DNA of 64,000 nt from Odobenus rosmarus divergens (Eukaryota > Chordata > Mammalia > Carnivora > Odobenidae). This document shows positions 11,838 through 43,173 of this stretch, piece by piece (the first letter of the stretch is position 1; each line of letters begins with the position of its first letter). Below the pieces are notes generated by a model. That model did not search any database and was not told where the DNA came from. It saw only the letters and a program-made list of their open reading frames with translations. A program made the translations under genes and the position numbers. The stretch spans positions 1,289,423 to 1,353,422 of the forward strand of contig NW_004450466.1 of assembly GCF_000321225.1 (NCBI RefSeq), written 5' to 3'.

Positions 11838-13024
<1,187 letters not shown>

Positions 13025-13252
13025 CTGTAATGGTTATTTTTGCTGACCACTTAGATGTCCCATCCAGTACACTCTGCTTGGCTGCTTTTGTGTACTGCAC
13101 AAAATCTTCTTTAGAAATCTGAAACATTTCCTGAATTACTTCAAACACCTCCGGCCTGTTTTTCTCCCTAATCTTCATTCTTTCTTTCATAGCCGTAATA
13201 ATGGTCTGAGTCTTGTCTTCGGCACCATGCTTAGAACTCTTTTCTGCTGCTC
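13025..13252 (-). CDS. UNC13C: UNC13C exon, C1-C2B linker and first strand of C2B
   Basis: This 228-nt exon comprises two bases completing Arg, 75 codons ([18 protein letters not shown] onward to [11 protein letters not shown]) and one trailing base. The acceptor is ccattatag|GA and the donor ACAG|gtaaaa. It encodes the charged helical linker joining C1 to C2B, and its last codons form the first beta strand of C2B. The middle portion, [18 protein letters not shown], fits Munc13-3 rather than Munc13-1, supporting the paralogue call. In the family this linker positions C1 and C2B rigidly on the MUN domain so that both can engage the membrane. The intron to the next exon is only 1,044 nt. The frame is intact. 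Confidence 0.96.
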
Positions 13253-16200
13253 CTATAATGGAAAAATCAATGGTGACGTAAATGCACATAAAGTTACTTT
13301 TTGATGGCCCAAGAGAGGGAGAGAAAGAAGGAATAGGAGAATGAATAAGTGGTTTCATTCTGAGGAGTCAGGGTACCTTCTTCACAGAACATCAGGACAA
13401 TATAAATGCTGCTGGACAAAATATCTAGGCTGAGATTCAGAACCAGCCTTTGTGTTAATGGCAAGTAAATAGACTTCCATGATTCCCAGTTTTGCCACAG
13501 TTGTATTATTTGATTAAATCAGGGGCTGTGCAAATATGTGGTTTGAATTTTCAAAGAGCAAAAAAGAATGCACACAGTCAAATATGGCATATACCACCTG
13601 CAAAACAAAACTGAGAAACAGGATATATATGGCAAATGTCTCCCCAAATTCAGTATTTCAAATACTTGCATTCAAAGTGCTTAATTATTTTTAATGATGG
13701 AACTTACCATAATTAAGTGCTTAAATTCTTCTTGTAAAATAAATACCACCGTTCTCTCTTATATACTGAAATACAGGTTAAGATTTTACTTGGAATTAAA
13801 GTGATTCTGCTGTTTAAAAAGGATTTAGAAACCAGTGGGTAGATGACCTCTAAATACATGATGGATCACAGGCCTCAACTCTCACTTTGTGATATGGCCA
13901 TAGTTTTTAATAGGATACATTCTTTCTACTCAAAACCCTTTTTGATTTCCAGGATTTTTTTATTTTTTTATTTTTTATGATTGGTCTCAACTTTCTGGGC
14001 ATTTTTGTTTATAACACTAATCCTTCTGGCAATGAAGGATTTCCAAAGGTCCATTCTTGGATCCCTCACCTTCTCCAGCTACCACCAGATATTTTCAGTG
14101 CTCTGTGTGGCCTCTGGGTTGTGCAATATTATACAAGTTAACAATGAACCATGATCCCAACTCTCATGGCTCCTTACTGAGTTTTAAATGAGAAAGCAAA
14201 ACCCCATGGACCAGTGTTGCAGGAGCTGCCACTGCTGATACCAAATATTTTGGGGTGCCAAACAAAGGTGATGTAGTGAAAAGAATAAAAAACAAAACTC
14301 ATGTTCACAGCTAGTAACAGTTCCAATTTTCATCTACATGACTATATTACCCAACTTACAATTTTTTTGAAATATATTTCTGAAATAGGCATGTTAATAT
14401 CTGGTAGAATGTTTAGAGGTTAAATGAGATAATTTATCTGCATGATTCCTACCACAAGGGATAGCCTCACTAATGTTCTTTGAATCTAAGTCTTTAAGCA
14501 TTAAGCCCAAATGAAGCACAGAAGTTAAGACAAAGAGGAAAAGGTCAGCCGTTAGCTTTCCTTATAATAAATTCATATTCAACAGCAGTACTTTGGTGAA
14601 AATCTTGATTTATTTGAAAGTATGACATTTGTTTCCTAAAGTGCAAAAAACACATTCATAATAACCAAGGTATAATTAGACAAAGTTAAAGGGATGAATA
14701 TTCTAATGGTATAAAGAGCAGATTCCCTGTCTTTATCTTAAAACAGCAACAACAACACAAAAACAAGAAAAAAAAACTTTGAGGACTTCAATCACATTTA
14801 AAAAAAAGAATACTAAAAATGACTGCATTACATTTAAGGTAATTTGAAAGGACATTCTAAATGTCCTAGTCATCTGTTAAAACAGGCCATAGAAAAGCTA
14901 CGCATTTGTAAATTGCATATCCTTAAATAATTAAGCATGTTTGTAATTTATCAACAATGGTTTAACTGTGCATGCATAATTCTTATACAGTAAAACTAGC
15001 TTAGGCTACTTGAATACTCCCAGGTACCCAATAGGCATATTGTACTTCAAGTACGGAAATATTCATTAAGTAGAAAGAAAAGGCAGTGCTGCCTTGAAAA
15101 AATTACTGCAAGATTCAAAGTGCCCCAAAAGTTTGATATGTGACAGCCATCCTAAGAATGAATGTTCAACAGGTGAGAAATGCCATGAAATTTAACTCTC
15201 CCCCAAATTTCTAAGTAACTATTATTGTTTTCGCTCTCAGTGCTCCCAAAGGCTACAGAAAAAAAGTGTTAAAGTCCTTGAGAGTTAATATATTTTGGAT
15301 TATTTTTCTAAATTCAGGAAGAGCCAGCGGACGACCACCCATGTAATAACACTCATTTAAGTAATCACTACCAAATTCAAAGGTAGAAGAAATCAAATCT
15401 CTGTACTTAACAACCGCCTCCTGAATTTTTTTAAAAAGAGTTAATTAAGAAAGCGTGACGATTTGCTGTGAAATCTTTCACCAATGCTCTTGATGTTGGA
15501 GCAGAGAACTCTAATTTGTGGACAACAGACAAACCATCAACTGTGAAACCACTATTCTGGGGAGAGCAGTTTAAGAGAGGCTTGTGTTTAAACCTTTTAT
15601 CTGTTATTTCTATAAAAAGATATGTGGCATTTTAAAAGTTCTACTTTTACATGTTTTGATCTGAGGGAAATGATTCAACTTAAATCTATGTAGTTTGGAG
15701 ACAGAGACAAATCTGTCATTTTTGTCACCGATCTACAAGCACTTTCCACCACCTATTGTTTATCAAACCTGATTTTTCTAATGAAACTATTTCTGAGATA
15801 GCTGCAATTTGCCATGAATTTCCAACCCTTTGGGCTTATTATTTTCCTTCAGGCTTGGTCTGTTTATCTCAAAGTCATCAGAGATAAACTTAAATTTGCA
15901 TTTATATGACTCTTCCTTCAAAGTGTATGATAGGTGTAGTAGCTTCACTGAAATACAATGAGTAGTAATATGTCAACCAAGGATCAACAATAAATGAGAT
16001 CAAAAGAGATAATGTACAGTGAAAGCACTTTGTAAAATGTAATACATTATCCAAATGGAATGCATCATTGTTACTTTTAAAAATACTTAATTGACAGATC
16101 AGAGGATACAATTATGAACAACAAAATTCATCCTTGCAAGAGATATAAGAGAATTCATCCGTGAACAGAGGCCAACTTACCTAAAATGGTTCCTTTCTAC

Positions 16201-24285: not shown

Positions 24286-24693
<408 letters not shown>

Positions 24694-40099: not shown

Positions 40100-40171
40100 C
40101 AGTTCCTCATTGTTTAGTGATGTCCTAATCACCATAGCCAGGGAGAGTCCAGATTTCCGGGCAGCCAGAGT
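40100..40171 (-). CDS. UNC13C: UNC13C internal exon, linker immediately before C1
   Basis: This is a phase 0-0 exon of 72 nt encoding 24 residues, [18 protein letters not shown] followed by LNNEEL. The acceptor is ttattttag|ACT and the donor is CTG|gtaggt. The Leu-Asn-Asn-Glu-Glu-Leu end joins directly to Lys-Ile-His-Val-Phe-Lys-Lys in the C1 exon at 24444-24663, as in the Munc13 family, where Asn-Asn-Glu-Glu-Leu-Lys precedes the zinc finger. The segment is amphipathic and basic and belongs to the regulatory linker between the N-terminal region and C1. The intron downstream is 15.4 kb. No stop or frameshift is present. Confidence 0.93.
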
Positions 40172-41949
40172 CTAAAATAAACAGAATTAGAAGTTACTGG
40201 CACATGAGGTGGCTGCCATGAACATACGGCTCAGCAGCACATGAAAATATAATAATACAGACTATCATTGTTCATGTTTTAGTCAATAGGATCTGACATT
40301 TTCAGTAGTCAGCGAGTTCATCCAGAATGTGGAATCATGAAACATCAAAGCTGAAAAAGTCCCCTTCTATTATCGAACTCAGCCCCTACATTTTGCAGAT
40401 GACAAAACTGAGGCCCAGCAAGGCAGGATGATGAGCCCTAGGTTTCCAGGCTAGCAAGAGCTTCTATAACTTTGCTTTTCCCCAAGGTGATCATGATCAC
40501 GATTACATTCCTTCATAAAACATGGCCACTGGTACAGAGCCAGATGATCTGTGTGACGGCCATGAAGCACAATTAAGGTTAGAGGATCCTTGAATTGTTC
40601 ACAGTTCCCCCAGAGTATTCTTTCATATCTAACCAGGATATTTTTTCTAAGTGTTCATTTTATCAACAGAAAACCATTATACCCAGATTGGTTTTCTTAA
40701 TGCAATGCTGCCAACTTCAGTGATTTTAATTAGAAGTCAAGTCCCTTTAGTTTCCCCACCGTAAAACAGAACCATTATATTGCTCTTCCTTGAAATGTGT
40801 GCGATATAGTGCACTCAGCAGTGCTGTCAAGAACTCTGGAAATCAATGTGGTATATATACACAATGGAATATTATGCAGCCATCAAAAGGAATGAGATCT
40901 TGCCATTTGCAATGACGTGGATGGAACTGAAGGGTGTTATGCTGAGTGAAATAAGTCAGTCAGAGAAAGACATGTATCATATGACCTCACTGATATGAGG
41001 AATTTTAATCTCAGGAAACAAACTGAGGGTTGCTGGAGTGGTGGGGGGTGGGAGGGATTGGGTGGCTGGGTGATAGACATCGGGGAGAGTATGTGCTATG
41101 GTGAGCACTGTGAATTGTACAAAAAAAATGAATCACAGATCTGTACTTCTGAAACAAATAATGCAATATATGTTAAGAAAAAAAAGAAGAAGAAGATAGC
41201 AGGAGGGGAAGAATGAAGGGGGGGAAATCGGAGGGGTAGATGAACCACAAGAGATGATGGACTCTGAAAACCAAACTGAGGGTTCTAGAGGGGAGGGGGT
41301 GGGGGGATGGGTTAGCCTGGTGATGGGTATTAAAGAGGGCACGTTCTGCGTGGAGCACTGGGTGTTATGCACAAACAATGAATCATGGAACACTGCATCA
41401 AATACTAATGATGTAATGTATGGTGGTTAACATAACAATAAAAAAAATTATTAAAAAAAAAAAGAACTCTGGAAATCAGAAGTTTTACATGGGAATTTTC
41501 AGTATGTCATCCCATTAGGAGCCAAGGGAAGTAAGTCATAGTGGAATTCTGTACCTGGTCTTAAATCTATCTCCTTGGAGCTACAAAGCGATAAACTCAG
41601 ATAAAAGTTCAGCACAATGCTGGGTGAGGAAGTCACTGTCCACCCATCTCCACCCCTACTGTATAAACCTATAGAGGGCTTACCTCTAAGGACTTACCCA
41701 AGATGATCTTCCAACTCTGACAACTATTATCCTTAAAATTATGTCTGTATCCTAGTTTAGTCTATATTGACACCTGTCATATATATAATTTGGTTTATCT
41801 TTCAGAATTGAACCAGAGGCTCTCTTGGAGAACCTAAATTTCTTATTCCTGTGTCTCTTTTTATTTCCCCATCTTGCCCTCTTTTATCTCAAGAATAAGT
41901 GCAGTGTATATGAAGAAGTATGGAAAATATTAAATTGAAAATCACTTAC
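40172..41949 (-). other. UNC13C: UNC13C intron, 1.8 kb, with young L1
   Basis: This intron lies between the 6-nt microexon and the 72-nt exon. About a third of it is an L1 3' end (40846-41461) inserted antisense to the gene. The remainder is unique sequence. Confidence 0.85.
40846..41461 (+). mobile_element. Young L1 3' end between UNC13C exons
   Basis: A 5'-truncated L1 (from atgtggtatatatacacaat) has the two-module 3' UTR. The target-site duplication aagaactctggaaatca is essentially exact at 40829-40845 and 41462-41478. It is inserted antisense to UNC13C, 0.5 kb from the microexon. Confidence 0.96.
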
Positions 41950-41955
41950 CATAGC
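41950..41955 (-). CDS. UNC13C: UNC13C 6-nt microexon (Ala-Met)
   Basis: On the minus strand the sequence reads ...cttggaatcttcag|GCTATG|gtaagtgatt: a pyrimidine-rich acceptor with a ctgac branch-point-like site about 24 nt upstream, six exonic bases, and a near-perfect donor. The upstream exon ends ...Arg-Asp-Val in phase 0 and the downstream exon starts Thr-Leu-Ala-Ala in phase 0. Inserting Ala-Met restores the D-V-A-M-T-L-A-A order I recall for Munc13-3; Munc13-1 has a similar Leu-Ala-Met at this place. Skipping it would delete two residues without a frameshift, so it could be alternatively spliced. No TGC (SRRM4-type) motif lies in the last 45 nt before the acceptor; the nearest is about 60 nt upstream. 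The call depends on splice-site strength and protein continuity, because six bases carry no homology by themselves. Confidence 0.8.
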
Positions 41956-43105
41956 CTGAAGATTCCAAGTGTCAGAGGAAACAAAGCGTAAATAATTATA
42001 AATAAGAAATGTGAGCAGAGAGTATAATGATGTTAAAATAAACTTAACACTTTAAAATAATGTCCACACTATAATGGCAGAAATATGAGCTGTACAGACA
42101 CGTCATGCTTTTCAGTGTAAGATCTTTCCAATCAAGGTTTTATCTTTCCTAATTTAAAGCCAAAGTGATGGTTTTCAGATGATGATTTTCATAGTAAAAT
42201 TAAAAATTGCTGATTATGAGAAATTGTGTACATTGTTGCAAAAAGGGAAATTTCTAAAAAAAATGGATAAAACATACTTTTAGGTCATAAACTACTAAGA
42301 CTATGCCTCCATAAAAAAAATGTGAAGACAATTGAGATAATAGAAAACATGCTGGTAGGCTATTTGTTTTTAGAATCTAATGCATGCCATTATCAATTCT
42401 TTGCATCTTCAGGTGGTCCCCAGCATATTTTGTTATAAGAGAGTTTGAGTTATTGAAAGTTATGTTCTGGCTTCATAAAGGTTTTAATAACTTGGGAGCC
42501 ATAGATTTCCTTAGATAGTGGAATCACTTATTAATGTGACTAGATCTTAATAAAGAATTGGTTAATATTATCTGCTGCTTTTTAAAGTAGAAAAAGTTTG
42601 GGTTAAGGGGAGGAAGTTCGAATCAAGACTCAAAGTGTGCTTTAAACTTGTGGTCATTTGAGACATTGTACATATCAAAGCCCAGTTGCAGCAGCTCACT
42701 TGGCATGCTGTGTGACTTTTGCTCAATTATAGTGCCATTTTAACTCAGTTTGTAATTTCAACCAATATAAAAATCTGTCAGGTGGTGTCTGTCTGGCTCC
42801 GTAGGTACAGCATGCAACTCTTGATCTTGGGGTCATAAGTTCAAGCCCCACACTGGGGGTGGGGGCGCGGCGGGGAGAGAAGCAAAGCTTAAAAAAAAAA
42901 AAAAAGCTGTCAAAAGTTTCGAGTTATTTCATTCACCTAAAAGATTTTAAAGAAATGATAAATGCAATACTTGGTAGAATCCAGCACCTTATATATTTTA
43001 TTCTATGAAATACAGGCAAGGCACTTAATGAGAAGGCCAAAACGACAGCTAATGAAGAAAACAGGGACACATTTTTTTAAAGAGAATGCAACAGGAGTGG
43101 CTTAC
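41956..43105 (-). other. UNC13C: UNC13C intron, 1.15 kb, with old tRNA-type SINE
   Basis: This intron lies between the 68-nt exon and the microexon. It carries a diverged tRNA-derived SINE at 42780-42906. The remainder is unique AT-rich sequence. Confidence 0.85.
42780..42906 (+). mobile_element. Diverged tRNA-derived carnivore SINE, older type
   Basis: The head is tRNA-like (ctgtctggctccgtaggtac, then catgcaactcttgatcttgg and gttcaagccccacac) with a G-rich stretch and an A-tail. It lacks the long CT block of the younger copies. Confidence 0.8.
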
Positions 43106-43173
43106 CACATCTCGTACAATAGGCAAAGTTTTTTTCCTGCGCAGATCTGGCATACTGTCAATGCCATAAAGTC
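43106..43173 (-). CDS. UNC13C: UNC13C internal exon, basic linker upstream of C1
   Basis: Read on the minus strand, this 68-nt exon gives two bases completing a Gly codon and then 22 codons, [22 protein letters not shown]. This resembles the Ser-Met-Pro-Asp-Leu-basic segment that precedes the C1 domain in brain Munc13 proteins. Munc13s prime synaptic vesicles at the presynaptic active zone by opening syntaxin-1. The donor is GATGTG|gtaagc. The acceptor is a T-rich tract ending in cgag, an unusual G at -3. The exon ends in phase 0, and the next coding bases (Ala-Met) lie in the microexon at 41950-41955. A plus-strand open frame that overlaps it is a shadow. The UNC13C paralogue call rests on my memory of family sequences and on the agreement of all six exons. 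The preceding exon was not found in the window. Confidence 0.9.

What the first reader, a model, noticed from the sequence alone, without database searches (positions are those of the whole stretch)
41950..41955. Six-nucleotide in-frame microexon in UNC13C
The exons on either side (43106-43173 and 40100-40171) end and begin in phase 0 but lack the Ala-Met that Munc13 proteins carry at this point. Exactly GCTATG, flanked by a pyrimidine-rich cag acceptor and a gtaagtg donor, sits between them. A 6-nt exon is easily missed by annotation pipelines, and skipping it would only remove two residues just before the C1 domain, so it is a candidate for neuron-specific splicing.
Basis: partly seen in the sequence, partly recalled or inferred. 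Interest (0 to 1): 0.75.

Follow-up and report, generated by a model that had tools for sequence, protein, structure and literature searches.

The report
Six-base microexon in UNC13C, known
A six-base exon in a synapse gene adds two amino acids just before a lipid-sensing domain; it is real and was already described in mouse and human, though the same optional pair of amino acids also turns up in proteins of the two sister genes.

Summary
GCTATG at 41950-41955 (minus strand) is a genuine, in-frame 6-nt UNC13C microexon coding Ala-Met, between the 68-nt and 72-nt exons that precede the C1-domain exon. Of the 120 proteins listed by the UNC13C search, 44 carry Ala-Met at exactly this junction, 65 lack it and 11 are odd. 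Six UNC13C entries with it have an exact twin without it, and a beluga model splices it straight to the C1 exon, so it is a separate cassette. It scores best of 203 possible 3-30-nt AG...GT exons in its intron. It is not new: PMC12287369 (EMBO Rep 2025) states that mammalian Unc13c has a 6-nt microexon at the position of the worm unc-13 9-nt microexon. What I add: the same optional Ala-Met is in 42 of 120 listed UNC13A-search and 25 of 120 UNC13B-search proteins, so it may predate the paralogues, although that paper calls the known Unc13b 6-nt exon apparently 'evolutionarily unrelated'. Gene models often drop the exon or seem to misplace its six bases. Neuron-specific use in UNC13C is plausible from worm data but untested; no RNA was examined.

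The parts
41950..41955 (-). 6-nt microexon GCTATG (Ala-Met)
   Evidence: Ala-Met at this junction in 44 of 120 listed proteins
41944..41949 (-). 5' splice site GTAAGT of the microexon, best-scoring donor of the six exons compared
   Evidence: 10.5 against 5.5-8.2; approximate matrix
41956..41975 (-). 3' splice site region of the microexon (CTGACACTTGGAATCTTCAG), weakest acceptor of the six compared
   Evidence: 4.5 against 8.9-10.5; T 0.31
41974..41986 (-). pyrimidine stretch CTTTGTTTCCTCT (-31 to -19), set back from the acceptor; branch-point-like TTTAC (A at -34) and CTGAC (A at -17) are two of several matches
   Evidence: consensus matches only
43106..43173 (-). upstream UNC13C exon, 68 nt, ends in phase 0 (...PIVRDV)
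40100..40171 (-). downstream UNC13C exon, 72 nt ([24 protein letters not shown])
24444..24663 (-). UNC13C exon carrying the C1 domain, 220 nt
   Evidence: Pfam C1_1 PF00130 E 2.7e-14 in the joined peptide
13025..13252 (-). UNC13C exon, 228 nt, after the C1 exon
11839..11980 (-). UNC13C exon, 142 nt, start of the C2B region (domain name recalled)

Best explanation
GCTATG at 41950-41955 is a real, evolutionarily old cassette microexon of UNC13C (Munc13-3). When included it puts Ala-Met into the linker before the C1 domain; when skipped the frame is kept and the linker is two residues shorter. Shown here: sequence, phase, splice sites, presence or absence of Ala-Met in orthologous gene models, independence from both neighbouring exons. 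Inferred: in this animal it is included in some UNC13C transcripts and skipped in others; its weak acceptor with a set-back pyrimidine stretch and strong donor mean that it needs helper splicing factors; and the change in linker tunes vesicle priming, as the worm counterpart is reported to do.
For: Sequence and phase. UNC13C search: of 120 listed of 3,572 matches, 44 have Ala-Met, 65 do not, 11 other, birds included (Apteryx rowi P0096 with, P0095 without). Thirteen AM- or VM-carrying records over the three searches have an exact twin without it, six of them UNC13C (one or two pairs are of sister taxa). Beluga P0063 reads RDV-AM-KIHVFKK: Ala-Met without the 72-nt exon. Panda and badger models carry it and differ from the window's included reading at 1 of 244 residues. 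Neighbour extension cannot give Ala-Met here. Best of 203 candidate pairs in the intron. T content 0.31 at -20..-5 and 0.51 at -90..-21, the direction that Li et al. 2015 report for alternative against constitutive micro-exons (PMC4317164, section 7 read). PMC12287369 states a 6-nt microexon in mammalian Unc13c at the identical position to the worm one (passages).
Against: No RNA was examined. The proteins are mostly predictions; 65 of 120 lack Ala-Met, and I cannot tell real skipping from annotation misses. The strong donor would also suit constitutive inclusion. No regulator stands out: nearest upstream TGC at -62; no GCATG, YGCY or TTTNTTT in 200 nt downstream, though YGCY (-124, -62, -33), TTTNTTT (-87, -30) and GCATG (-153) match upstream (motifs recalled).
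Confidence: 0.95

Rival explanations
1. The microexon is real but essentially constitutive in UNC13C; proteins without Ala-Met are gene models in which the pipeline could not place a 6-nt exon.
For: Only 2 of 24 UniRef-only rows of the UNC13C list carry Ala-Met, against 42 of the other 96. Some models hold other residues at the spot (VSR, VSY, VK, FQ in UNC13C; VS, VG, PQ in UNC13A), as if six bases had been forced into flanking introns; Val-Ser is what GTAAGC after the upstream exon reads in this window.
Against: NCBI isoform-X models of one species give both forms (beluga X1 and X2, Phocoena X1 and X2, Alexandromys X2 and X1, Apteryx rowi X2 and X1). The acceptor is weak. PMC12287369 marks the family's microexons as alternatively spliced (Fig. 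7A legend).
Confidence: 0.3
2. The Ala-Met codons come from an alternative splice site of a neighbouring exon, not from a separate exon.
For: In principle an alternative 5' or 3' splice site gives the same two-residue difference in proteins.
Against: 6-nt extensions here read Val-Ser (upstream) and Phe-stop (downstream); beluga P0063 has Ala-Met without the downstream exon.
Confidence: 0.01
3. Chance match: an intronic GCTATG that happens to have splice-like flanks.
For: 113 of 500 shuffles contain some 3n-length pair with an equal summed score.
Against: 1 of 500 shuffles has an equally good 6-nt pair and 3 of 500 a 6-nt GCNATG with donor score of at least 0; Ala-Met is independently present at this junction in 44 of 120 listed proteins.
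Confidence: 0.01

Closest known systems
Mammalian Unc13c 6-nt microexon noted in EMBO Rep 2025 (PMC12287369; passages and section 14 read)
   Same: Same gene, same length, same place, which the paper gives as between the calmodulin-binding and C1 domains.
   Different: Here seen with its splice sites in the genomic DNA of another mammal; the passages I read give no sequence for the mouse or human exon.
C. elegans and Drosophila unc-13 9-nt microexon (VLK in the worm), same paper
   Same: Position in the protein as stated there; tiny in-frame cassette.
   Different: 9 nt and three residues, against 6 nt and Ala-Met; the neuron-type regulation that I read about is from the worm.
Unc13b 6-nt SRRM4-dependent microexon (Quesnel-Vallieres et al. 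2015; not held; known here through PMC5247714 and PMC12287369 passages)
   Same: 6 nt, paralogous gene; UNC13B proteins carry an optional Ala-Met at the homologous junction (25 of 120 listed).
   Different: PMC12287369 says that it appears evolutionarily unrelated to the worm exon; I could not read which residues the 2015 exon codes, so whether it is this Ala-Met is open. No TGC close to the acceptor here.
APBB1/2/3 6-nt micro-exons (Li et al. 2015, PMC4317164; passages and section 7 read)
   Same: A 6-nt alternative microexon at the paralogous position in three sister genes.
   Different: Unrelated gene family.

Membership tests
UNC13 (Munc13) gene, UNC13C paralogue | C1 domain and flanking sequence closest to UNC13C orthologues | tested here: met
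   C1-exon region 100% identical to several listed UNC13C entries; included reading differs from panda and badger UNC13C at 1 of 244 residues
Mammalian Unc13c microexon | 6 nt, in frame, just before the C1 domain | tested here: met
Mammalian Unc13c microexon | Lies after the calmodulin-binding segment | not tested
   position taken from PMC12287369; I did not look for that segment in the window
Mammalian Unc13c microexon | Its residues are present in orthologous proteins | tested here: met
   44 of 120 listed have Ala-Met, 65 lack it, 11 other
Alternatively spliced neuronal microexon | Both isoforms exist in transcripts | tested here: inconclusive
   exact twin gene models; no reads examined
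Alternatively spliced neuronal microexon | Inclusion differs between neuron types or between neurons and other cells | not testable with these tools
   needs RNA data
SRRM4-dependent microexon | UGC close upstream of the 3' splice site | tested here: not met
   nearest TGC starts at -62; feature seen in the abstract passage of PMC5247714
Homologue of the worm and fly unc-13 9-nt microexon | Same intron position in the protein | tested here: inconclusive
   stated in PMC12287369; no worm or fly sequence compared here. One snail record (P0002) lacks the insert, and one of its two copies starts at SLAAKRN, the same junction

The most novel reading that the evidence does not exclude
The optional Ala-Met is one ancestral microexon kept in all three neuronal vertebrate UNC13 paralogues (A, B and C) at the position of the invertebrate 9-nt exon. 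The SRRM4-controlled Unc13b exon would then be its sister rather than unrelated as printed, and Munc13-1, -2 and -3 would share one two-residue switch next to C1. PMC12287369 already says that Unc13a, Unc13b and Unc13c all encode microexons; the new part is the same residues at the same junction.
Probability: 0.7. Interest if true: 0.4.

Novelty: already known. Interest (0 to 1): 0.3.

Why it matters
Worm UNC-13 uses a three-residue microexon at this place as a neuron-type switch. If the same Ala-Met choice exists in all three vertebrate paralogues, Munc13 isoforms that differ only by it would test directly whether that switch tunes release in mammals. It also warns that many database UNC13 sequences omit the exon or seem to hold wrong residues there.

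Tried and rejected
Solved structures did not help: Munc13-1 chains in the PDB matched only from shortly before C1, so included and skipped queries scored alike. Pfam found C1 only; the open stretch at 15256-15444 matched nothing. A motif scan for SRRM4, RBFOX, MBNL, ELAV, NOVA, QKI and PTB sites gave scattered matches and no clear regulator (motifs recalled). The stricter pattern (40 with, 41 without, 39 unclear, of 120) missed birds and variants and was replaced (44, 65, 11); the 65 include P0002, a snail protein. In one search no record held either joined reading exactly, and the P0009 rows are void (the slice ran off the start of the protein). Paper searches: one paper holds both 'Unc13c' and 'microexon'. 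Of the 13 papers I read passages of six and only the listing of the other seven; the UNC13A and UNC13B passages outside PMC12287369 concerned a cryptic exon, exon 38, the SRRM4 exon of UNC13B, or an unspecified retinal exon. PMC7821500 passages did not name Unc13.

Full report
What is there. The minus strand of the window carries part of UNC13C. Between the 68-nt exon (43106-43173, ending PIVRDV) and the 72-nt exon (40100-40171, starting TLAARK) lies a 2,934-nt stretch holding CAG|GCTATG|GTAAGTG, with the 6-nt exon at 41950-41955. The two introns, 1,150 and 1,778 nt, are phase 0. The joined reading of six exons (68, 6, 72, 220, 228 and 142 nt) is open, and leaving out the 6 nt keeps the frame. 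The next exon (24444-24663) encodes the C1 domain (Pfam C1_1).

Is it more than chance. GCNATG with AG before and GT after occurs once in the intron. Of 500 dinucleotide shuffles, 1 had a 6-nt pair as good on both sites, 3 had a 6-nt GCNATG with a donor score of at least 0, and 113 had some 3n-length pair with an equal sum. The splice scores alone would therefore not be decisive; the protein evidence is.

Orthologues. A protein search scored on the C1 exon found 3,572 matches and listed the best 120, so the counts are of a capped list. At the junction 44 of 120 carry Ala-Met, 65 have no insert and 11 are other (one of the 65 is a snail protein). Thirteen AM- or VM-carrying records over the three searches have an exact twin lacking just those two residues: six UNC13C, three UNC13A, four UNC13B; in at least two of the UNC13B pairs the twins bear different taxon names (horse and Przewalski's horse; cattle). 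Beluga isoform X3 (P0063) runs RDV-AM-KIHVFKK, Ala-Met without the 72-nt exon, so it is separable from that exon. In this window an extension of the upstream exon would add Val-Ser and of the downstream exon Phe-stop. Panda, badger, horse (P0024) and a Myotis bat (P0020) models carry Ala-Met and differ from the window's included reading at 1 of 244 residues; the ferret entry lacks it and differs from the skipped reading at 1 of 242; no record holds either reading exactly. The protein thus does not fix the species. A carnivore is my guess from the look of the repeats, which is recall, not a search.

Paralogues. UNC13A search (120 listed of 2,586): 42 read SDL-AM-SL, 72 have no insert, 6 other. 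UNC13B search (120 listed of 3,078): 25 with Ala-Met, 87 without, 8 other, of which 2 (Chelonia mydas) read Val-Met. UNC13B entries with Ala-Met include gar, Xenopus and a human entry (P0357, P0359, P0352, P0266). That the insert is a separate microexon in A and B is inferred from the twins; I saw no genomic DNA for them. PMC12287369 says that mammalian Unc13a, Unc13b and Unc13c all encode microexons, gives the identical position for Unc13c, and says that the Unc13b 6-nt exon of 2015 appears evolutionarily unrelated. The protein data suggest a closer relation, but the 2015 paper could not be read.

Annotation. Of 24 UniRef-only rows of the UNC13C list, 2 carry Ala-Met, 18 lack it and 4 are other; of the remaining 96, 42, 47 and 7 (the 24 picked by eye). 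Some models have other residues here: VSR (3), VSY (2), VK (2) and FQ (1) in UNC13C; VS (2), VG (1) and PQ (1) in UNC13A. Val-Ser is what the six bases after the upstream exon read in this window. My inference is that pipelines met six extra bases in transcripts and pushed them into a flanking intron.

How it may work. The donor is the best of the six exons compared (10.5 against 5.5-8.2) and the acceptor the weakest (4.5 against 8.9-10.5). T content is the lowest of six at -20..-5 (0.31) and the highest of six at -90..-21 (0.51), and the previous AG lies 87 nt upstream. Li et al. 2015 report lower T close by and higher T beyond 20 nt upstream for alternative micro-exons (PMC4317164 section 7); they also report stronger donors and acceptors for constitutive micro-exons, so the strong donor here points the other way. 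In the worm, inclusion of the unc-13 microexon depends on PRP-40, EXC-7 and MBL-1 and differs between motor and olfactory neurons; forced skipping impairs synaptic transmission and forced inclusion impairs olfactory behaviour (PMC12287369 passages). A mammalian equivalent for UNC13C is inference: in mouse data that paper found only Cadps covered well enough.

Verdict. A correct and well-reasoned observation of an exon already in print for mammals. The added value is the Ala-Met option in proteins of all three paralogues and the annotation trouble around it.

Noticed in passing
P0089, P0092, P0022, P0026, P0030, P0014, P0018, P0091 (UNC13C); P0176, P0183, P0182, P0138 (UNC13A): Database UNC13 models hold wrong-looking residues (VS, VG, VK, FQ, PQ) where Ala-Met belongs, apparently six bases misplaced into a flanking intron.
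   Followed up: partly
40100-40171: The 72-nt exon itself contains GGCTATGGT, repeating nine bases of the microexon with its flanks; probably chance.
   Followed up: no
P0063; P0242, P0269: The 72-nt exon is itself skipped in some models: beluga UNC13C with Ala-Met kept, and two UNC13B entries without Ala-Met.
   Followed up: no
P0002: A snail unc-13 record holds the C1 region twice; one copy begins exactly at the exon junction (SLAAKRN), the other reads SDL-SLAAKRN without the insert.
   Followed up: partly
15256-15444: A 63-codon open stretch on the minus strand with a protein-like look matched no Pfam family.
   Followed up: partly
42800-42900 and 40870-41480: The introns around the microexon appear to hold a carnivore-type tRNA-derived SINE and L1-like pieces (labels recalled, not searched).
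   Followed up: no
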